From assembly GCA_026387965.1 (NCBI GenBank), contig JAPLKR010000028.1:1-7787 (forward strand): 7,787 nt of DNA, written 5' to 3'. Under the pieces are notes generated by a model, which did no database searches, was not told where the DNA came from, and saw nothing but the letters and a program-made list of their open reading frames with translations. Origin of the DNA: Fusobacteriota bacterium. GTDB lineage: Bacteria > Fusobacteriota > Fusobacteriia > JAPLKR01. This document shows positions 1 to 7,787 of this stretch, in pieces (positions within the stretch are counted from its first letter, which is position 1; every line of letters starts with the position of its first letter). The translations under genes and the position numbers were made by a program.

Positions 1-1
1 T

Positions 2-61
2 ATGATAGAATTAGCAATAATTCAATTGCAAAAAGAGAAACTTTCTAAGAAAAACAAATAA
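2..61 (+). CDS. Small peptide MIELAIIQLQKEKLSKKNK, unknown function
   Basis: This is a 19-residue ORF, almost identical to the one at 800-859 (Met-Leu in place of Met-Ile at the start). Its ribosome binding site would lie outside the window; the equivalent copy has GGGAGG five bases before the ATG. The peptide has a hydrophobic first half and a very basic second half (several Lys), so it could form a short amphipathic helix. The next small ORF starts 18 bases after its stop. I do not recognise it; expression is inferred only from duplication and from the ribosome binding site of its copy. Confidence 0.4.
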   Translation: MIELAIIQLQKEKLSKKNK

Positions 62-79
62 TAAAACTTAGGAGATGTA

Positions 80-124
80 ATGATTAAGAAGTCATGGGCA
101 GTTGAGTTTTATAGCACAGAATAA
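80..124 (+). CDS. Small peptide MIKKSWAVEFYSTE, unknown function
   Basis: This 14-residue ORF has TTAGGAG (68-74) five bases before its ATG. Its first eleven residues, MIKKSWAVEFY, are shared with three other ORFs in the window (505-573, 713-781 and 878-922); the tail STE is shared only with 878-922. Its stop runs directly into the terminator stem at 124-156, so it is the last translated element of its transcript. The sequence before the start contains ATGTAATG, in which a start-stop pair overlaps the real start. It could be a leader peptide or a peptide shortened by recombination. No function is recognised. Confidence 0.45.
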   Translation: MIKKSWAVEFYSTE

Positions 125-160
125 AAGCTAATCATGCGAAATAAATGATTAGCTTTTTTT
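124..160 (+). terminator. Rho-independent terminator after small-ORF unit, copy 1
   Basis: A perfect 12-bp stem (AAAGCTAATCAT, 124-135, with ATGATTAGCTTT, 145-156) encloses a 9-base loop and leads into seven T residues (154-160). It immediately follows the stop of the 14-residue ORF. An identical copy lies at 922-958. Confidence 0.9.
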
Positions 161-228
161 ATTTGCAAAGAAAATGTGAAGAGTGAAGATCTCTAATGTT
201 AAGTATTTTTTAGAAGCTTGAAGGAGTA

Positions 229-430
229 ACTTTTGGAGGACATTTTAGGAATGATGCGTTATACCGCATGTGAATTGGTAATTAAAGAGACTTAGAAGAC
301 TCTTTTTAATTTATTCCGAGAATGCATAATATATAAATCGATTGAGCACGGTGTGGTTAGATTTAATTTGATATTTGAAGATTAACGAGAAATAATAAAT
401 TCTTATGCGCATAAGCAGATTTACTTAAAT
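229..430. other. Non-coding stretch between the two small-ORF blocks
   Basis: I see no ORF with a convincing ribosome binding site here on either strand. It holds a small hairpin (ATGCG 254-258, CGCAT 265-269, loop TTATAC), a weak terminator-like hairpin (AAAGAG 284-289 with CTCTTT 300-305, followed by two more T), and a 14-bp perfect palindrome at 402-415. The rest is AT-rich filler before the promoter at 440-468. Confidence 0.5.
402..415. promoter_or_regulatory. Perfect palindrome, possible operator
   Basis: CTTATGCGCATAAG is its own reverse complement over 14 bases. It ends 24 bases before the -35 hexamer of the small-ORF promoter at 440-468, a position suited to an activator or repressor dimer. 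The related promoter at 649-677 has no such palindrome. Binding is inferred from symmetry and position only. Confidence 0.4.
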
Positions 431-439
431 ACAATTAAG

Positions 440-468
440 TTGCATATATGTAAATAAAGTGCTATACT
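440..468 (+). promoter_or_regulatory. Promoter P1 of the small-peptide cluster
   Basis: TTGCAT (440-445), a 17-base spacer and TATACT (463-468) give a good housekeeping-type promoter. Transcription would start near 475 and reach the first MIKK ORF about 30 bases later. The surrounding sequence (TTAAATAC-ATT-A-TTG ... AAATAAAG) is repeated around the promoter at 649-677, so the promoter was duplicated along with the ORF. Confidence 0.7.
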
Positions 469-481
469 TTGTGTGTGGAAA

Positions 482-598
482 AAAGTAAAACTTAGGAGGC
501 AAAAATGATTAAGAAATCATGGGCAGTTGAGTTTTATAGAGATTTAAGAGAAACGGTAAGATTTACAAAATAAATTATTAGGGAGGTCAATATGTTAG
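482..598 (+). repeat. 208-bp tandem unit, conserved core copy A
   Basis: Bases 482-598 match 690-806 at an offset of 208 with two differences (A/G just before the ATG, and a silent G/A in the Thr codon of the 22-residue ORF). The core spans the ribosome binding site, the 22-residue ORF, the next ribosome binding site and the first codons of the following ORF. The similarity continues more weakly upstream through the promoters. Confidence 0.9.
505..573 (+). CDS. Small peptide MIKKSWAVEFYRDLR..., unknown function (copy A)
   Basis: This 22-residue ORF begins MIKKSWAVEFYRDLR and ends ETVRFTK. It has a near-perfect ribosome binding site (AGGAGG, 494-499) five bases before ATG and lies about 30 bases after the predicted start of transcription from P1. 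An identical peptide is encoded at 713-781, where the one coding difference is silent. The peptide is charged, with one Trp, two Phe and one Tyr, and has no signal peptide or membrane segment. Strong translation signals and conserved residues argue that it is translated; it may be a regulatory leader peptide, a signalling peptide or a short membrane-active peptide. I do not recognise the family. Confidence 0.6.
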   Translation: MIKKSWAVEFYRDLRETVRFTK

Positions 599-666
599 CA
601 AGGACAATAGTACAGTTAAAAAAATATATTCGCTTAAATACGATTGAGTTGAATTCGTGCAAATAA
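592..666 (+). CDS. Small ORF MLARTIVQLKKYIRL..., probably a recombined copy
   Basis: This 24-residue ORF has GGGAGG (581-586) five bases before ATG. It occupies the same place after the MIKK ORF as the 19-residue ORF at 800-859 and shares its start and a QL-K pattern, but its second half is encoded by the DNA that forms promoter P2 (649-677). That overlap suggests the tandem duplication fused the start of one ORF to the next promoter region, so it may be a by-product of rearrangement rather than a selected peptide. Confidence 0.35.
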   Translation: MLARTIVQLKKYIRLNTIELNSCK

Positions 667-677
667 AGAGACATACT
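649..677 (+). promoter_or_regulatory. Promoter P2 of the small-peptide cluster
   Basis: TTGAAT (649-654), a 17-base spacer and CATACT (672-677) match P1 in spacing and in flanking sequence, with a weaker -10. It would drive the second 22-residue ORF (713-781), the 19-residue ORF, the 14-residue ORF and stop at the terminator at 922-958. It lies inside the end of the preceding small ORF. Confidence 0.6.
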
Positions 678-689
678 AAATGTATAAAA

Positions 690-806
690 AAAGTAAAACT
701 TAGGAGGCGAAAATGATTAAGAAATCATGGGCAGTTGAGTTTTATAGAGATTTAAGAGAAACAGTAAGATTTACAAAATAAATTATTAGGGAGGTCAATA
801 TGTTAG
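690..806 (+). repeat. 208-bp tandem unit, conserved core copy B
   Basis: This is the second copy of the segment at 482-598, two differences in 117 bases. Its right end overlaps the start of the second 228-bp repeat at 799, so the two duplications are nested: the 228-bp unit continues the natural downstream part of the 208-bp unit. Confidence 0.9.
713..781 (+). CDS. Small peptide MIKKSWAVEFYRDLR..., unknown function (copy B)
   Basis: This ORF encodes the same 22 residues as 505-573, with AGGAGG five bases before ATG. The only coding difference from copy A (ACA for ACG, Thr) is silent, which fits selection on the peptide, although recent duplication would explain it equally well. Copy B heads the most complete unit: promoter P2, 22-residue ORF, 19-residue ORF, 14-residue ORF, terminator. 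Confidence 0.6.
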   Translation: MIKKSWAVEFYRDLRETVRFTK

Positions 807-859
807 AATTAGCAATAATTCAATTGCAAAAAGAGAAACTTTCTAAGAAAAACAAATAA
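800..859 (+). CDS. Small peptide MLELAIIQLQKEKLSKKNK, unknown function
   Basis: This 19-residue ORF has GGGAGG (789-794) five bases before ATG and starts 18 bases after the stop of copy B, as in a polycistronic message. A hydrophobic N-terminal half (LELAII) and a Lys-rich C-terminal half resemble short amphipathic, membrane-active peptides in general character only. It is duplicated at 2-61 with a single residue change. No family is recognised. Confidence 0.45.
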   Translation: MLELAIIQLQKEKLSKKNK

Positions 860-877
860 TAAAACTTAGGAGATGTA

Positions 878-922
878 ATGATTAAGAAGTCATGGGCAGT
901 TGAGTTTTATAGTACAGAATAA
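878..922 (+). CDS. Small peptide MIKKSWAVEFYSTE, unknown function (copy 2)
   Basis: This 14-residue ORF gives the same peptide as 80-124; one Ser codon differs silently. TTAGGAG ends five bases before ATG. It shares the first eleven residues of the 22-residue peptides, then diverges to STE and a stop that abuts the terminator. The most complete unit therefore carries both a long and a short version of the MIKK peptide. Confidence 0.45.
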   Translation: MIKKSWAVEFYSTE

Positions 923-958
923 AAGCTAATCATGCGAAATAAATGATTAGCTTTTTTT
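922..958 (+). terminator. Rho-independent terminator after small-ORF unit, copy 2
   Basis: Identical to the hairpin at 124-160: a 12-bp perfect stem, a 9-base loop and seven T residues. It closes the P2 transcript and insulates the TM2-sigma operon downstream. Confidence 0.9.
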
Positions 959-1047
959 ATTTGCAAAGAAAATGTGAAGAGTGAAGATCTCTAATATTAA
1001 GTATTTTTTAGAAGCTTGAAGGAGTAGCGACTGTCTTTAAAAATTAG

Positions 1048-1499: not shown

Positions 1500-2369
1500 A
1501 TGGAAAGAGACGAAGTTGAAAGTGAAGAGATACGCGAAGAGAGTGAAGAACTTGATATTATCAAAATGTACCTGAATGAGCTCCATTATATTGAGCCTAT
1601 AACGCTAGAAGAAGAATATAAAATATCTAAAGCGGCGTTTGAAGGTAATGAAGAAGCTAGAGAAAAGTTATATGTATGTAATTTGAAATTAGTTGTGAGC
1701 TTAGCTAAACGCTATCTTTACAGCGGTCTTCCAATACTCGATTTAATTCAAGAGGGGAACGTTGGTTTAGTAGAAGCCGTGAATCGATTTGATGTATCTA
1801 AAGGATATAAGTTTTCAACTTATGCAGCACATTGGATTAAAAAAGAGATTATTCGATATATTGCAGATCAAGGCAAATCAATTCGAATTCCACAACATGT
1901 TATGTCATTTGTATATAGAATAAAAAAAGTCAAAAGAGAGTTTTATCAAATGCATAGCAGAGAACCTGAGATTATTGAAATAGCGGAAATTTTGGACGCC
2001 GATGCATGGAGAGTGCAAGAGGTTCTTTCATATCAATTAGATAGTGTTTCATTAGAAGCCCCAGTGGGAGATGAAGAAGAAAAAAATCTTTCTGATTTTG
2101 TTGAGGACTGTACAAGAATGTCTCCTTATGAAGAAATAGAGCGTAAAATGCTGAAAAAAGAGATTATTAAGGTACTAGATGGTCTCAGTATTCAGGAAAA
2201 GGATGTCATTGTTGCCTACTATGCACTTGAAAATGATTTGACTCCATCAATAGATAGTGTGGCCGATAAGTTTAATATTTCAGTAGAAGAAGTTAGGCAA
2301 ATTGAATATAGAGCACTAAAAAAACTAAGAAGCCCAAATATTAAAAGAAAATTGATTGCTTTAAGATAA
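1500..2369 (+). CDS. Sigma-70 family RNA polymerase sigma factor, short and divergent
   Basis: This 289-residue protein has sigma regions 1.2 (about 18-50), 2.1-2.4 (61-135, with DLIQEGNVGLVEAVNRFD and KFSTYA), 3 (about 136-190) and 4 (about 225-280, ending in VRQIEYRALKKLR). Region 1.1 is missing, so it is shorter than RpoD/SigA and looks like a group 2 or alternative factor. Residues that in SigA/RpoD contact the -10 element are changed: the TWWIRQAITR segment reads AHWIKKEIIR (110-119). In region 4.2 the position matching the -35-contacting Arg584 of E. coli RpoD is Val262, while Gln267 (Gln589) is kept. AAGGGGG precedes the ATG by a few bases. It is the second gene of an operon with the TM2 protein and is followed by a terminator. 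Family assignment is certain; the alignment numbers are from memory. Confidence 0.93.
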   Translation: MERDEVESEEIREESEELDIIKMYLNELHYIEPITLEEEYKISKAAFEGNEEAREKLYVCNLKLVVSLAKRYLYSGLPILDLIQEGNVGLVEAVNRFDVSKGYKFSTYAAHWIKKEIIRYIADQGKSIRIPQHVMSFVYRIKKVKREFYQMHSREPEIIEIAEILDADAWRVQEVLSYQLDSVSLEAPVGDEEEKNLSDFVEDCTRMSPYEEIERKMLKKEIIKVLDGLSIQEKDVIVAYYALENDLTPSIDSVADKFNISVEEVRQIEYRALKKLRSPNIKRKLIALR

Positions 2370-2401: not shown

Positions 2402-2578
2402 ATGTTGGTATTAATTAATTTCAACTTATCACGAGCAAAAATTAATAGATTTTTTTACTGAATCATGCTTATTATGATTAGTTTGACATGTATTGAAAGT
2501 TGGGTGGATATTGAGGCGTTGCTAAATAATTTTTAAGTATATTTATATCAAGAAGCCAAATCATAGGAGGCAAATAAA
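2402..2578. other. Intergenic region before a broken small gene
   Basis: No ORF is supported. A TTGACA hexamer (2483-2488) is followed after 18 bases by GATATT (2507-2512), a possible but weak promoter for the broken gene at 2579. A strong ribosome binding site (AGGAGG, 2565-2570) lies at the right end, eight bases before its ATG. Confidence 0.35.
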
Positions 2579-2778
2579 ATGAAAAAACTAATTTATTAGC
2601 AGTAGGGATGCTGTTAATTACAAGTATAATGGTTGCAACAAGTATCTACCGATATAGAAACAAGCATTATTGGGGTCCAGTACCAGACTATTTCTACTTT
2701 TAATTGCAATTATTTAATCAAATCGATCAATCTGTTCAATTTATCAATAATGATGATGGTGGAGATGGCGTTGTATAG
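2579..2778 (+). pseudogene. Broken gene for a small secreted or membrane peptide
   Basis: An ATG (2579) with AGGAGG eight bases upstream starts a peptide that stops after six codons. One extra A in the A6 run after the ATG would open a frame reading MKKTNLLAVGMLLITSIMVA, then TSIYRYRNKHYWGPVPDYFYF, to a TAA at 2701. Past that stop the same frame continues as LQLFNQIDQSVQFINNDDGG and DGVV to TAG at 2776-2778, which still looks like protein. The original was probably a product of about 66 residues with a Lys-Lys hydrophobic signal or anchor and a polar, acidic tail. One base deletion plus one nonsense change fits decay; slippage on the A run could restore only the first 41 residues. No family is recognised. 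Confidence 0.6.
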
Positions 2779-2938: not shown

Positions 2939-2944
2939 AATTTT

Positions 2945-3103
2945 ATCAGCGACGGCTGAAGCTGACGACGGTTAGCGAAAAAAAGGAACCTAAAAAATTA
3001 TACCATATCCAAATTTTGCTAGGTTGCTATAATAAGGCTGCTTTCGAGCATGCCGCAAAGCTCTAATCCCCAGTGATTCATTTCACTGGGGATTATCTTT
3101 TAT
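2945..3103 (+). ncRNA. tracrRNA, long form
   Basis: This RNA pairs with the crRNA repeat and with Cas9. The anti-repeat is 2997-3033: against the repeat at 7752-7787 it gives 7 bp, a UUC/UUG internal loop, 5 bp, a small internal loop and 20 bp without a mismatch, so the whole repeat is covered. After the anti-repeat comes a hairpin (3036-3054) with a GGC/GCC base, a UGCU/AGCA upper stem, one bulged U and a UUCG loop, then CGCAAAGCTCT and the terminator hairpin. This order (AUAAGGC ... GCCGCAA-GCUCU ... CCCC) matches the Neisseria tracrRNA layout as I recall it. The leader 2945-2996 has two small hairpins and can fold onto the anti-repeat. RNase III processing would trim the leader. The ends are predicted from the promoter and terminator. 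Confidence 0.92.
3065..3103 (+). terminator. tracrRNA terminator hairpin
   Basis: AATCCCCAGTG (3065-3075) and CACTGGGGATT (3084-3094) form a perfect 11-bp stem with an 8-base loop. The following T tract (ATCTTTTATATTT) is interrupted, so some read-through into cas9 is possible. The hairpin is also the 3' structural element of the tracrRNA. Confidence 0.85.
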
Positions 3104-3112
3104 ATTTCACTA

Positions 3113-3175: not shown

Positions 3176-6100
3176 ATGAAATATAAAATTGGATTAGATT
3201 TAGGAATTGCATCATGTGGCTGGTGCGTTATCAATAATGATGAAGATAGAATAGAAGATTTAGGGGTTAGAATATTTACATCGGCTGAAAATCCTAAGGA
3301 TGGTGGTGCGTTAGCAGTACCGAGACGAGAGGCTCGAAGTGCAAGACGACGTAATAGAAGAAGAAAATTTAGAATGCATCGTATTAAACAACTTCTAATC
3401 AGGAAAAATTTAACGACAAAAGAGCAGTTGGAAAGTTCAGTGAAAGGCTTGTTGTCGCCATGGGAGTTAAGAAAAGAGGTTCTTTCAAGAATTGTTACTG
3501 GTGAAGAGTTGGCAAAAATATTGGTTCACATAGCAAAACGTCGTGGGTATCAATCAAATAGAAAATCCGATGAGCGAGACGTTACAAATGATTCGGGGAA
3601 AGTTATAAGTGGCATCAAAGAGATGCGTGAGGTGTTACAAGAAAAAGGGTATCAAACAGTGGGAGAGATGTTTGCTGTTGATGAGAAATTTCATGAGCAC
3701 AAACGTAATAAAGGGGGAAGTTATGCTTTTTCAGTTGATAGAAAAATGCTACTTGACGAGATTTCCCAGATATTTCAAATACAAAGAGAATTAGGAAACC
3801 CTCTAGCTACTAATGAACTTGAAGAAAAGTTTGTTGAAGTTTTTAAAAGTCAACGAAATTTTGCAGATGGGCCAGGAATTTCAGGGTATACAAAAGAGGG
3901 TGAAATAATATTCTCTCCTTTTGGAGGAGATCAAATTGAAAAAATGATGGGGCGATGCGCTCATTTTAAAGAAGAACCGAGAGCGGTAAAAAATGCATAC
4001 AGTTCTGAACTTTCAATTTTGTTTCAAAAAATCAATCAACTCAAAATTGGAAGAGGGCATGATAAACGTCATTTACTAGCAGAAGAGAGAGAACTCTTAG
4101 TTAAAGAAGCGCATGAAAAAAAAGAGTTGAAATATGCACAAATTAGAAAATGGTTAAATTTGACAGAAGATGAACGTTTTAATTTGTTGAGTTATGGGCG
4201 AAAAAGTAATGAAGAAATAGAAAAAGCAAAATTTTGTGAGCTCAAAGGGTATCAAGAGACAAAAAAAGCCATAGAAAAAGTGAGTAAATCGTATTTTGAA
4301 ACGATTAAAGAAAATAGAGAACTCCTTGATGATATCGCCTATGCTGTAACAGTGTATAAGAGTGATGAAAAAATCATTGAAAAGTTATCGAAATATTCCA
4401 TACCTAACGACATATTGGATGAAATTTTACTTTTGAGTTTTTCAAAAACGTCCAATCTTTCGATAAAAGCATTAAAAATGATAGAGCCTTATTTACAAGA
4501 AGGGTGTATGTATCATGAGGCATGCGAAATGGCGGAGATAAATCATACAAAAAATCAGCAAGGAGATAAGTTCGATATATTGCCTGTAATTAGTAAAGAA
4601 GAGGTAATTAATCCAGTGGTGCTGCGTTCTCTTTCACAAACGCGTAAAGTGGTAAATGGTATTATTAGAAAGTATGGAACACCGGATACCATTCATATAG
4701 AGCTTGCACGAGAGCTTTCAAAAAACTTTAAAGATAGACAAGATATTATTAAAGAACAAAAGAAGAATCAAGATAAAAATGAAAAAGCAAAGGCAGATTT
4801 AATTGAACGGTATGGTCTTAAAACGCCTACCGGTGGAGATATTCTTAAGAGTAGACTTTTTGATGAACAAGATGCAAAGTGTTTTTATTCATTTAATACC
4901 ATTGATAGAAATAGACTTTTTGAAAAAGGATATGTAGAAATTGATCATATCCTGCCGTATAGTCAAACATTTGATGACTCATACAATAATAAGGTACTCG
5001 TACTTGCTCAAGAGAATCAGCATAAACGCAATAGAACGGCGCATGAATATGTAGAATCTAAGGGTGGTGAGTTTTTACATAAATATGAGGAGATTATAAA
5101 AGGCACTTATAAAATTTCGTCTACAAAGCGTGATAATTTATTAAAGGGGAAACTCACGCAAGAAGATATGGAGGGATTTAAAGAGAGAAACTTAAGTGAT
5201 ACAAAATACATCACGCGTTTTATGAAGAATTTTCTAGAAAATAATCTTGAGTTTTCATCAAAATCCAATAGTTTAAAAGTATATACGGTAAAAGGCGCTT
5301 TGACGGCAAAGCTTCGAGGTATCTGGGGAATCACAAAAATAAGAAGTGAAAGTGATATACATCACGCCATAGATGCTGCAGTTGTCGCTGTAGCGACTAA
5401 GTCTGCAGAGCATTTTGTGGAGAATTTACAAAAATTGAGTGTGAAATCCGTTAATTTAAAGACGGGAGAGTACTTCGAAAATAGTAAGGATTTAGAAACG
5501 TATCGAATGGCAGAGCTCAAAATGAAGATACCTCAACCTTGGGCACATTTTAGAGATGAGCTAGAATACAGAGTGGCGGAAAATGGAATTGAAGCGCTTA
5601 AGAATGAGGCAACACGAAGTTATATGAAGTATTCACAAGAGTTTGTGAATACCTTAAAGCCTATTTTCGTCTCAAGAATGCCAAATCATAAAGTGACGGG
5701 GCCAGCGCATCAAGAGACTTATCGTAGTAGTAAGCATTTGCAAGATGAAAAGTCTACAGTAAAAACACCTCTAACCAAGCTGACCTTTAAGAATATCGAT
5801 GATATTGCTAATGCAGAGAGCGATACTCTTTTGGTAAATGCTTTGAAAGTAAGACTGGAAGAATATTCGGGAGATGGTGTTAAAGCCTTTGCCAAAGCAT
5901 TTTATAAACCAAAATCAGATGGAAGTCAGGGACCATTGGTAAGAAGTGTAAAACTTCTTTCAGTTCAAAAAGGGGGCGTTCCCGTTCTTAAAGGAGACGC
6001 AATTGCAGATAGAGCTTCGATGGTGAGAATTGATATATTTTCTAAGAAAAATGCTAAAGGAAAGGAACAGTTTTATATTGTTCCAATCTATGTCGCCGAT

Positions 6101-6427
6101 ACAGTCAAAAAGGAGCTTCCTAATAATGCGATAGTTGCCAACAAATCACACTCGGAGTGGATAGAGATGGATGCTGAGTATGGATTTAAATTTAGTCTGT
6201 ACCCTAATGATTTAGTTAGATTAGAAATGAAAGAGGAAAAAAATTTTTACTATTATAAAGGTGTAGATGTATCTACGGGCGCAATTAGTTTGGATGATAT
6301 TTTGGGAAGATTGGAGAAAGATACAAGGAAAGGAATCAAAAGTCCGGAAAAATTTGAAAAATGGGGTGTGGATGCTCTCGGAAATATTGCAAAAATCAAA
6401 AATGAAAAGAGGCTCTCATTTCGATAA
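3176..6427 (+). CDS. cas9: CRISPR-associated endonuclease Cas9, type II-C
   Basis: This is the RNA-guided DNA endonuclease of the locus. It has 1083 residues, close to the compact II-C GeoCas9 (about 1087) and well below SpCas9. Order: RuvC-I with KIGLDLGIASCGW (D8), Arg-rich bridge helix (about 49-72, PRREARSARRRNRRRKFR), REC lobe, RuvC-II with IELARE (E509), HNH with EIDHILPYS and ENQHKRNRT (D590, H591, N614), RuvC-III with SDIHHAIDA (H730, D733), then WED and PAM-interacting domains to the C terminus. All residues expected for cutting both strands are present, so it should be an active nuclease. GGGAG lies six bases before the ATG. It heads the operon: cas1 begins nine bases after its stop. 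Partners are the tracrRNA just upstream and minus-strand crRNAs from beyond the window. PAM preference cannot be read from this sequence. Confidence 0.98.
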   Translation: MKYKIGLDLGIASCGWCVINNDEDRIEDLGVRIFTSAENPKDGGALAVPRREARSARRRNRRRKFRMHRIKQLLIRKNLTTKEQLESSVKGLLSPWELRKEVLSRIVTGEELAKILVHIAKRRGYQSNRKSDERDVTNDSGKVISGIKEMREVLQEKGYQTVGEMFAVDEKFHEHKRNKGGSYAFSVDRKMLLDEISQIFQIQRELGNPLATNELEEKFVEVFKSQRNFADGPGISGYTKEGEIIFSPFGGDQIEKMMGRCAHFKEEPRAVKNAYSSELSILFQKINQLKIGRGHDKRHLLAEERELLVKEAHEKKELKYAQIRKWLNLTEDERFNLLSYGRKSNEEIEKAKFCELKGYQETKKAIEKVSKSYFETIKENRELLDDIAYAVTVYKSDEKIIEKLSKYSIPNDILDEILLLSFSKTSNLSIKALKMIEPYLQEGCMYHEACEMAEINHTKNQQGDKFDILPVISKEEVINPVVLRSLSQTRKVVNGIIRKYGTPDTIHIELARELSKNFKDRQDIIKEQKKNQDKNEKAKADLIERYGLKTPTGGDILKSRLFDEQDAKCFYSFNTIDRNRLFEKGYVEIDHILPYSQTFDDSYNNKVLVLAQENQHKRNRTAHEYVESKGGEFLHKYEEIIKGTYKISSTKRDNLLKGKLTQEDMEGFKERNLSDTKYITRFMKNFLENNLEFSSKSNSLKVYTVKGALTAKLRGIWGITKIRSESDIHHAIDAAVVAVATKSAEHFVENLQKLSVKSVNLKTGEYFENSKDLETYRMAELKMKIPQPWAHFRDELEYRVAENGIEALKNEATRSYMKYSQEFVNTLKPIFVSRMPNHKVTGPAHQETYRSSKHLQDEKSTVKTPLTKLTFKNIDDIANAESDTLLVNALKVRLEEYSGDGVKAFAKAFYKPKSDGSQGPLVRSVKLLSVQKGGVPVLKGDAIADRASMVRIDIFSKKNAKGKEQFYIVPIYVADTVKKELPNNAIVANKSHSEWIEMDAEYGFKFSLYPNDLVRLEMKEEKNFYYYKGVDVSTGAISLDDILGRLEKDTRKGIKSPEKFEKWGVDALGNIAKIKNEKRLSFR

Positions 6428-6436
6428 GGAGGTTAG

Positions 6437-7312
6437 ATGGCATTTAGAAATATCCTTATTTCAAACCATGTAAAACTCTCGGTAAAAAATGGGCAACTGC
6501 TTGTGGAGAAGGCGGGGGATATTACCCCCATTCCACTTGAGGATATATTTGCATTGGTGGTAGATGAGCCAACCGTTTATTTCTCTACAGCACTGCTCTG
6601 CAAATTGGCGAATTTCAACATCTTACTCTTTGTGTGTGATGAAAAGCATCTGCCACATGGTATATTTCAGGGATTTCAGCAACATTCAAGACAGTATAAG
6701 GTTGTGAAAAGTCAGTTAGAGATCCCCAAACCTCTTGAAAAGCAGGTGTGGCAAGCAATCATAAAACAAAAGATCATCAATCAAGCTAGAACTTTAGAAA
6801 AGCTAGAATTAGAATTTGAAAAAGTAGAAAATATTGCAAAACTGGTAAAATCAGGGGATAGTGATAATCGAGAGGGGTATGCAGCAAAAGTATATTTTGA
6901 AATACTTTTTTCACGGCAGATGACACGGAGGTGCGAGCATGTTGTTAACAGTGCGCTCAACTATGCTTACGCTGTCGTAAGAGGGGCAATTGCGCGTGAG
7001 TTGGTGGGATATGGATTTTTACCGTGCATTGGGATTAACCATGAGAGCGAGCTAAATAATTTTAACTTAGCAGATGACTTTATAGAACCCTTTAGACCTT
7101 TAGTAGATTACTATGTGTTAAAATACGTCGCCCTTGAAAATGATCTGCTTGTGATTGAAGATAAACGGAAAATTCTTGAGATACTTACTTTTGATGTTTC
7201 AGTTGAGAGTGAAAGCTATTGGGTTATGAATGCTGTATCGGCTATGGTGAAAAGCTTTTCTACTACGCTGAGAACAGGCACTTTAGAACTTAAAATGCCA
7301 ACATTTTTATAA
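6437..7312 (+). CDS. cas1: CRISPR-associated integrase Cas1, type II
   Basis: With Cas2, Cas1 inserts new spacers into the array. This 291-residue protein is of usual type II length. It has the N-terminal beta-strand domain (about 1-80) and a C-terminal helical catalytic domain with the metal-binding triad E146 (NREGYAAKVYF), H202 (GINHESELN) and E217 (DDFIEPFRPLVD). AAGGAGG (6426-6432) overlaps the cas9 stop and lies four bases before ATG, so translation is probably coupled. Cas2 follows after 20 bases. In type II systems Cas9 and tracrRNA also take part in choosing spacers with a PAM. Nothing is missing. Confidence 0.97.
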   Translation: MAFRNILISNHVKLSVKNGQLLVEKAGDITPIPLEDIFALVVDEPTVYFSTALLCKLANFNILLFVCDEKHLPHGIFQGFQQHSRQYKVVKSQLEIPKPLEKQVWQAIIKQKIINQARTLEKLELEFEKVENIAKLVKSGDSDNREGYAAKVYFEILFSRQMTRRCEHVVNSALNYAYAVVRGAIARELVGYGFLPCIGINHESELNNFNLADDFIEPFRPLVDYYVLKYVALENDLLVIEDKRKILEILTFDVSVESESYWVMNAVSAMVKSFSTTLRTGTLELKMPTFL

Positions 7313-7332
7313 CACTTATTGAGAGAGGAAAT

Positions 7333-7650
7333 ATGCCAAAATTTATGCAACTTTTAGTTTTTTTTGATTTGCCCGTAGTGGCACTAACGGATAGAAAAAA
7401 TTATGCACGGTTTAGAAAATTTTTACTCAATGATGGGTATCAAATGATCCAATTCTCTGTGTATTCAAGAGTGTGTGGGGGAATGGATGGTGTGGAAAAG
7501 CATCGAAGACGGCTTTCACACAATTTGCCCCCCAAAGGATTTGTACGTTCCTTAATACTGACAGACAAACAATTTTCTGCAATAGAGTTTTTGGTAGGAC
7601 TTGAAAAGAAGGCTGAATCGCTTCGACCAGATATATTAACACTTTTTTGA
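7333..7650 (+). CDS. cas2: CRISPR-associated protein Cas2
   Basis: Cas2 is the small dimeric scaffold between two Cas1 dimers in the spacer-integration complex. This 105-residue protein has the ferredoxin-like fold start MPKFMQLLVFFDLPV with the conserved Asp (D12) after the first strand, then the RYARF-like helix (NYARFRKFLLNDGY) and the QFSVYSRV strand of type II Cas2. A purine-rich site (GAGAGAGGA) precedes the ATG by two to three bases. It is the last gene of the operon: no csn2 (II-A) or cas4 (II-B) follows before the terminator and the array, which makes the locus II-C. A 7-bp inverted repeat (7640-7646 with 7660-7666) overlaps its end; significance unknown. Confidence 0.96.
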   Translation: MPKFMQLLVFFDLPVVALTDRKNYARFRKFLLNDGYQMIQFSVYSRVCGGMDGVEKHRRRLSHNLPPKGFVRSLILTDKQFSAIEFLVGLEKKAESLRPDILTLF

Positions 7651-7742: not shown

Positions 7743-7751
7743 GTGTCACCT

Positions 7752-7787
7752 ATTATACCATATCCAAATTTACTAGGGAACTATAAC
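7752..7787 (-). CRISPR. First visible CRISPR repeat (36 bp) at the edge of the array
   Basis: Read on the minus strand, the repeat begins GTTATAGTTCCC and ends GGATATGGTATAAT, 36 bases in all. It is identified as a repeat by its near full-length complementarity to the tracrRNA anti-repeat at 2997-3033, and by the shared GTnATAGTTCCC start and TGGTATAAT end that I recall for the GeoCas9 repeat. The window stops exactly at the repeat edge, so spacers and other repeats are not visible. The last nine bases form an extended -10, a probable crRNA promoter. Because the array is read toward cas2, this should be the leader-distal, terminal repeat. Confidence 0.88.

What the first reader, a model, noticed from the sequence alone, without database searches (positions are those of the whole stretch)
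1..960. Repeated cluster of very short peptide genes (MIKKSWAVEFY family)
Four ORFs share the start MIKKSWAVEFY (14 or 22 residues), each with a strong ribosome binding site five bases upstream, interleaved with three ORFs beginning ML or MI. The cluster has its own promoters and terminators (P1, P2, 124-160, 922-958). The repeated order is promoter, 22-residue ORF, 19-residue ORF, 14-residue ORF, terminator. ORFs this short are usually missed by gene callers. Possible roles include leader peptides, signalling peptides, small toxins, or paired membrane-active peptides; none can be chosen from sequence alone.
Basis: partly seen in the sequence, partly recalled or inferred. Interest (0 to 1): 0.72.

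Follow-up and report, generated by a model that had tools for sequence, protein, structure and literature searches.

The report
Lineage-specific arrays of tiny peptide genes
A little-studied relative of Fusobacterium carries two clusters of genes for peptides only 14 to 24 residues long; the pattern of DNA changes between the clusters indicates that the peptides are real products under selection, but nothing like them is known and what they do is not shown.

Summary
Window 1-960 has four ORFs starting MIKKSWAVEFY (14, 22, 22 and 14 codons) and three B-type ORFs (19, 24 and 19 codons), all but the first (cut by the contig edge) visibly led by a GGAG-like box. The stated order promoter-22-19-14-terminator is complete only once; most copies are recent DNA duplicates, so copy number is weak evidence for genes. 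The decisive evidence lies elsewhere: the same genome has one further, diverged locus (contig C121, before a menB-like gene) with the order promoter-B-A-terminator. Its MIKKSWAVEFY differs from the window's at 4-5 of 33 bases, all synonymous third positions (simulated chance 0.0002-0.002), and the B ORF keeps its QKxKxSKKNK end. Both loci share one promoter/operator sequence with exact matches nowhere else in the genome. I found no homologue in 97 Fusobacteriia genomes, GTDB species genomes, viral contigs, phages, plasmids, Pfam, NCBIfam or the PDB. An RNA hairpin over the A start exists but is only partly kept at C121. Best reading: autonomous, co-regulated operons of cytoplasmic micro-peptides that act in trans on a cellular partner. 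That they are genes is well supported (about 0.8); that mode of action is inferred. Leader-attenuator and membrane-toxin roles are less likely.

The parts
2..61 (+). B-type ORF, 19 aa, MIELAIIQLQKEKLSKKNK (upstream region cut by contig edge)
   Evidence: homologous to C121:2860-2922
80..124 (+). A14 ORF, MIKKSWAVEFYSTE
   Evidence: GGAG at 71-74
123..157 (+). terminator-like stem AAAAGCTAATCAT...ATGATTAGCTTTT with T run; overlaps the A14 stop codon
   Evidence: (inverted repeat I1), 52 for the copy at 921-955
251..295 (+). possible further short ORF MMRYTACELVIKET, followed by a hairpin and T run; weak resemblance only
424..468 (+). promoter P1: conserved block TTAAATACAATTAAG, -35 TTGCAT (440-445), 17-base spacer, -10 TATACT (463-468)
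505..573 (+). A22 ORF, MIKKSWAVEFYRDLRETVRFTK
592..666 (+). B-related ORF of 24 aa, MLARTIVQLKKYIRLNTIELNSCK; its 3' half runs through promoter P2
633..677 (+). promoter P2: conserved block TTAAATACGATTGAG, -35 TTGAAT (649-654), 17-base spacer, -10 CATACT (672-677)
713..781 (+). A22 ORF, identical peptide; one silent difference from 505-573
800..859 (+). B-type ORF, 19 aa, MLELAIIQLQKEKLSKKNK
878..922 (+). A14 ORF, MIKKSWAVEFYSTE; one silent difference from 80-124
921..955 (+). terminator-like stem with T run

Best explanation
Window 1-960 is a tandemly duplicated operon of genuine micro-peptide genes. A sigma-70-type promoter preceded by a conserved, roughly palindromic block (probably a regulator's operator) drives a short mRNA that carries an A peptide (invariant MIKKSWAVEFY plus a variable tail) and a B peptide (variable start plus QKxKxSKKNK), and ends at its own terminator. 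The peptides have no signal sequence or membrane segment, so they most likely stay in the cytoplasm and act in trans by binding a protein or ribonucleoprotein partner, A by its invariant 11-residue start and B by its basic end, when the common regulator switches the units on. Shown: the ORFs, the duplication, the second locus, the synonymous pattern and the promoter block unique to these units. Inferred: translation, regulation by an operator, cytoplasmic action and a binding partner.
For: One diverged second locus in the same genome (C121:2777-3026, DNA E 1e-15, 75%) with the order promoter-B-A-terminator. A-core differences are at bases 6, 9, (12), 24 and 27, all silent; P = 0.0002-0.002 by simulation. 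The recent duplicates also differ by silent changes inside the A ORFs (ACG/ACA, AGC/AGT). B keeps QK.K.SKKNK with three silent differences. TTAAATACNNTTNAGTTGNAT has exact matches at the three units only in 1.79 Mb, and all three have a 17-base spacer to the -10. SD-led short ORFs exceed shuffles. The genes downstream differ (TM2/sigma operon here, menB-like there), so the units are autonomous. Precedents for 14-15 residue peptides acting in trans: SpfP on CRP (PMC11955535, PMC11188072) and peTrpL (PMC7298713).
Against: No homologue outside this genome, so selection is inferred from a single paralogous pair and few changes. No expression data. The A start region also forms an RNA hairpin whose core is kept at C121, so part of the conservation could be at RNA level. 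The A tails differ, and the 24-codon ORF looks like a by-product of the tandem duplication. No partner or regulator is identified.
Confidence: 0.42

Rival explanations
1. Structured regulatory RNA: the conserved thing is the hairpin UAAAAY...GGAG...AUGAU....AUCAUGGGCAGU..RUUUUA, and the short ORFs are incidental or only serve to control the RNA (non-coding or dual-function sRNA with a 3' terminator).
For: Unit transcripts fold better than shuffles (z -4.7 and -3.5, terminator included). Window copies fold better than most synonymous versions (3-9% as stable). One compensatory C-G to U-A pair.
Against: At C121, 29% of synonymous versions are at least as stable. Three outer pairs and one inner pair are broken there, whereas no codon of the A core changes meaning. 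B ORFs show no excess of structure. No Rfam family matches.
Confidence: 0.17
2. Exported peptides: leaderless signalling, bacteriocin-like or membrane-active peptides released to act on the same or other cells.
For: Small multi-peptide arrays with separate ribosome-binding sites resemble leaderless peptide operons (own knowledge); most peptides are cationic (+3 to +4). B keeps its C-terminal end.
Against: No significant amphipathicity, the 14-mer has no net charge, and no transporter, immunity, receptor or modification gene was recognised beside the array in the window; at C121 the neighbour is an MFS-type transporter gene that looks like an ordinary metabolite carrier (by eye).
Confidence: 0.14
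3. Leader-peptide attenuators: translation or stalling on the last A ORF disrupts the adjoining terminator and lets RNA polymerase read into the downstream gene.
For: The A14 stop codon overlaps the terminator stem in the window, and at C121 the ORF runs through the 5' arm. A contains Trp, Phe and Tyr.
Against: Downstream genes are unrelated at the two loci and have promoter-like sequences of their own (1048-1076 here; a TACAAT box before the menB-like gene, by eye). One window copy precedes only another unit. Leader peptides do not need identical 11-residue cores before unrelated genes.
Confidence: 0.1
4. Remnants: repeats without present function, for example decayed N-termini of RelE/HigB-type toxins, which can also begin W[S/A]VEFY.
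For: A relaxed pattern scan hit three proteins with a W-S-V-E-F start, about 107-121 aa, that look like RelE/HigB/Gp49-type toxins from their sequence (L070, L076, L081).
Against: The pattern selected for that resemblance; no full-length relative in the genome. Silent-only differences and kept SD, promoter and terminator do not look like decay.
Confidence: 0.1

Closest known systems
SpfP (15 aa, encoded in Spot 42 sRNA of E. coli; acts on CRP)
   Same: Peptide of the same size on a short transcript of its own; acts in trans on a cytoplasmic protein
   Different: Single ORF in a base-pairing sRNA; no sequence similarity seen; here several ORFs of two kinds per unit, tandemly duplicated
peTrpL (14-aa leader peptide with a role in trans, Sinorhizobium)
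   Same: 14-residue peptide next to a terminator
   Different: peTrpL is the leader peptide of trpE(G); the units here do not precede a common gene
Leaderless multi-peptide operons (tandem short cationic peptides)
   Same: Several short ORFs, each with its own ribosome-binding site, mostly cationic
   Different: Not significantly amphipathic; no dedicated transporter or immunity gene recognised; two unrelated peptide types
RelE/HigB-type toxins
   Same: W[S/A]VEFY at the N-terminus
   Different: The proteins found by the pattern have about 107-121 residues; A ends after 14-22; the similarity was selected by the search pattern

Membership tests
Translated small-protein genes (general) | Substitution pattern that keeps the peptide | tested here: met
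   A core: 4-5 of 4-5 differences silent, P 0.0002-0.002; B: C-terminal end kept
Translated small-protein genes (general) | Ribosome-binding site | tested here: met
   GGAG about 5 bases before each A start in the window; 6 SD-led short ORFs against 0.12 in shuffles
Translated small-protein genes (general) | Ribosome occupancy or peptide detected | not testable with these tools
   no expression data
Ribosome-dependent attenuator leader peptides | Common function of the gene downstream / no separate promoter | tested here: not met
   menB-like gene at C121, TM2/sigma operon here; promoter-like sequences after the terminators (partly read by eye)
Leaderless membrane-active peptides | Amphipathic helix | tested here: not met
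   helical moments not significantly above shuffles (p 0.10-0.80)
Leaderless membrane-active peptides | Dedicated transporter or immunity gene nearby | tested here: inconclusive
   none in the window; an MFS-type carrier lies before the C121 unit, no family search run on it; the left side of the window array is beyond the contig edge
Type I toxin | Hydrophobic membrane-spanning peptide | tested here: not met
   mean hydrophobicity 0.18-0.46 and no long hydrophobic run (and the sequences)
RelE/HigB-type toxins | Full toxin fold of about 100 residues | tested here: not met
   14-22 residues; no Pfam or NCBIfam match to the 20-24-residue peptides, no PDB match to A22
Known RNA families | Match to an Rfam model | tested here: not met
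   none at gathering threshold; best below-threshold matches 18-26 bits

The most novel reading that the evidence does not exclude
A previously undescribed family of co-regulated two-peptide operons in a deep-branching Fusobacteriia lineage, in which an invariant 11-residue peptide (MIKKSWAVEFY) and a basic partner peptide control a cellular process in trans, with translation of A gated by a hairpin over its own start codon.
Probability: 0.3. Interest if true: 0.65.

Novelty: new variant of a known kind. Interest (0 to 1): 0.45.

Why it matters
Peptides of 14-22 residues are below the cut-off of gene callers, so families like this stay invisible. Two diverged loci in one genome allow a codon-level test that is rarely possible for such short ORFs, and here it comes out in favour of coding. 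If true, this is a compact model for co-regulated micro-peptides, directly testable by ribosome profiling and pull-down.

Tried and rejected
Homologues: exact and relaxed degenerate patterns in viral contigs and GTDB 220 genome contigs, profile search in viral contigs, profiles and patterns in 97-98 Fusobacteriia genomes, tblastn in phages and plasmids, blastn in both. The hits that I read, which include the best-scoring ones, were chance or unrelated genes. phrog_28059 matched the C121 B peptide at E 0.008, but the same model gives equal or better scores in frames of long unrelated ORFs, in 41 of 97 genomes at E up to 1, and in 7 of 14 control genomes, so it is dropped. Further operator sites: two 2-mismatch hits (C23, C117) lead no peptide unit; a 1-mismatch hit at C58 was not read. 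Further DNA copies: weak hits on C88, C114, C41 and C67 are chance. One search was a malformed alignment and is not used. Searches of the PDB and the literature for the peptide gave nothing. Structure prediction was not run because the peptides are below the tool's 30-residue minimum.

Full report
What is in the sequence. The window is a 7787-base contig (G000:C99) of a 1.79 Mb draft genome in 141 contigs. Its nearest held genomes share only its class. That class is most likely Fusobacteriia: one of them, G050, has a contig of 961,624 bases, exactly the length of the Ilyobacter polytropus record NC_014633.1 that the window's Cas9 also matches; this is an inference from the equal length. Window 1-960 holds four A ORFs and three B ORFs as listed under parts. 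The array is built by duplication: 1-228 equals 799-1026 at 99%, and 479-624 equals 687-832 at 92%. The contig begins inside a repeat copy, so more units may exist to the left. SD-led short ORFs number 6 against 0.12 in shuffles, with the caution that the copies are not independent.

The second locus. In the rest of the genome the A sequence occurs once more, at C121:2940. That locus reads: promoter (2777 onward), B ORF MSLAWTFVEAQKAKISKKNK (2860-2922), A ORF MIKKSWAVEFYNKRRVNQSI (2940-3002), terminator-like hairpin, then a menB-like gene and, further on, other menaquinone-pathway-like genes (named from their sequences, no family search run). B-A-terminator matches the window's B-A14-terminator at 75% DNA identity (E 1e-15). 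No other copy was found.

Coding or RNA? Over the 11-codon A core, C121 differs from A22 at bases 6, 9, 24 and 27 and from A14 also at base 12. All are third positions and all are silent; random substitution gives this with P 0.0017 (four) or 0.0002 (five). The recent window duplicates differ by one silent change in each A pair and one I/L change in B. B and its C121 counterpart share QK.K.SKKNK, with three silent differences and two changed codons. Against this stands an RNA hairpin that encloses the A ribosome-binding site and start codon. In the window only 3-9% of synonymous versions are as stable, but at C121 29% are. Counting pairs, C121 keeps the core and has one compensatory pair, but loses three outer pairs and one inner pair, besides a variable two-pair helix. 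Constraint on the peptide has no exceptions in the A core, constraint on the hairpin has several; peptide constraint is therefore the better account, while a regulatory role for the hairpin remains open.

Promoter. P1, P2 and the C121 promoter share TTAAATACNNTTNAGTTGNAT, with TTGNAT as a -35 and a -10 (TATACT, CATACT, TATAAT) 17 bases on (spacing read). Exact matches in the genome are these three only. The block TTAAATACATTTAA at C121 is close to a palindrome, less so at P1 and P2, so an operator is a reasonable but unproven reading. The tool's own promoter scan did not list P1 or P2, so the promoter assignment rests on the conserved spacing, not on that scan.

How it most likely works. Each complete unit has its own promoter and terminator, and the genes downstream of the two loci are unrelated, so the unit is autonomous. 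The peptides lack signal sequences, membrane segments and significant amphipathicity, which speaks for action inside the cell. The invariant start of A and the kept end of B suggest binding determinants. The B stop codon lies next to the 5' arm of the A14 hairpin, so a ribosome finishing B could open the A start (translational coupling); this is inference. Peptides of 14-15 residues that act in trans are known (SpfP, PMC11955535 and PMC11188072; peTrpL, PMC7298713), which makes the model plausible without making this a member of those families.

Distribution. No homologue was found in any collection searched (see tried and rejected), and no family model matches the 20-24-residue peptides convincingly. 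For sequences this short, absence in distant genomes is weak evidence, because diverged relatives could not be recognised. The relaxed scan did show that RelE/HigB-like toxins can start W[S/A]VEF(Y); the scan pattern selected for this, so it is a lead only.

Verdict. Real micro-peptide genes: about 0.8. Cytoplasmic, trans-acting peptide operons: about 0.42, with a structured-RNA reading at 0.17 as the main rival.

Noticed in passing
window 2985-3105: Likely tracrRNA: anti-repeat ATTATACCATATCCAAATTTTGCTAGG followed by hairpins and a strong terminator (z -6.2); cas9, cas1 and cas2 follow at 3176-7650.
   Followed up: partly
window 7751-7787: The contig ends in a sequence similar to the anti-repeat (ATTATACCATATCCAAATTTACTAGGGAACTATAAC), probably the first CRISPR repeat, so the array itself is missing.
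   Followed up: no
window 2578-2703: A short secreted-type peptide frame (TNLLAVGMLLITSIMVATSIYRYRNKHYWGPVPDYFYF) whose ATG at 2580 is in another frame: apparent frameshift in an A run.
   Followed up: partly
window 1500-2369: RpoD-like sigma factor of 289 aa that scores below the RpoD equivalog cut-offs, in an apparent operon with a TM2/zinc-ribbon protein, next to the peptide array; whether it has to do with P1/P2 is unknown.
   Followed up: no
window 251-295: Another short ORF (MMRYTACELVIKET) followed by a hairpin and T run, between the first terminator and P1.
   Followed up: partly
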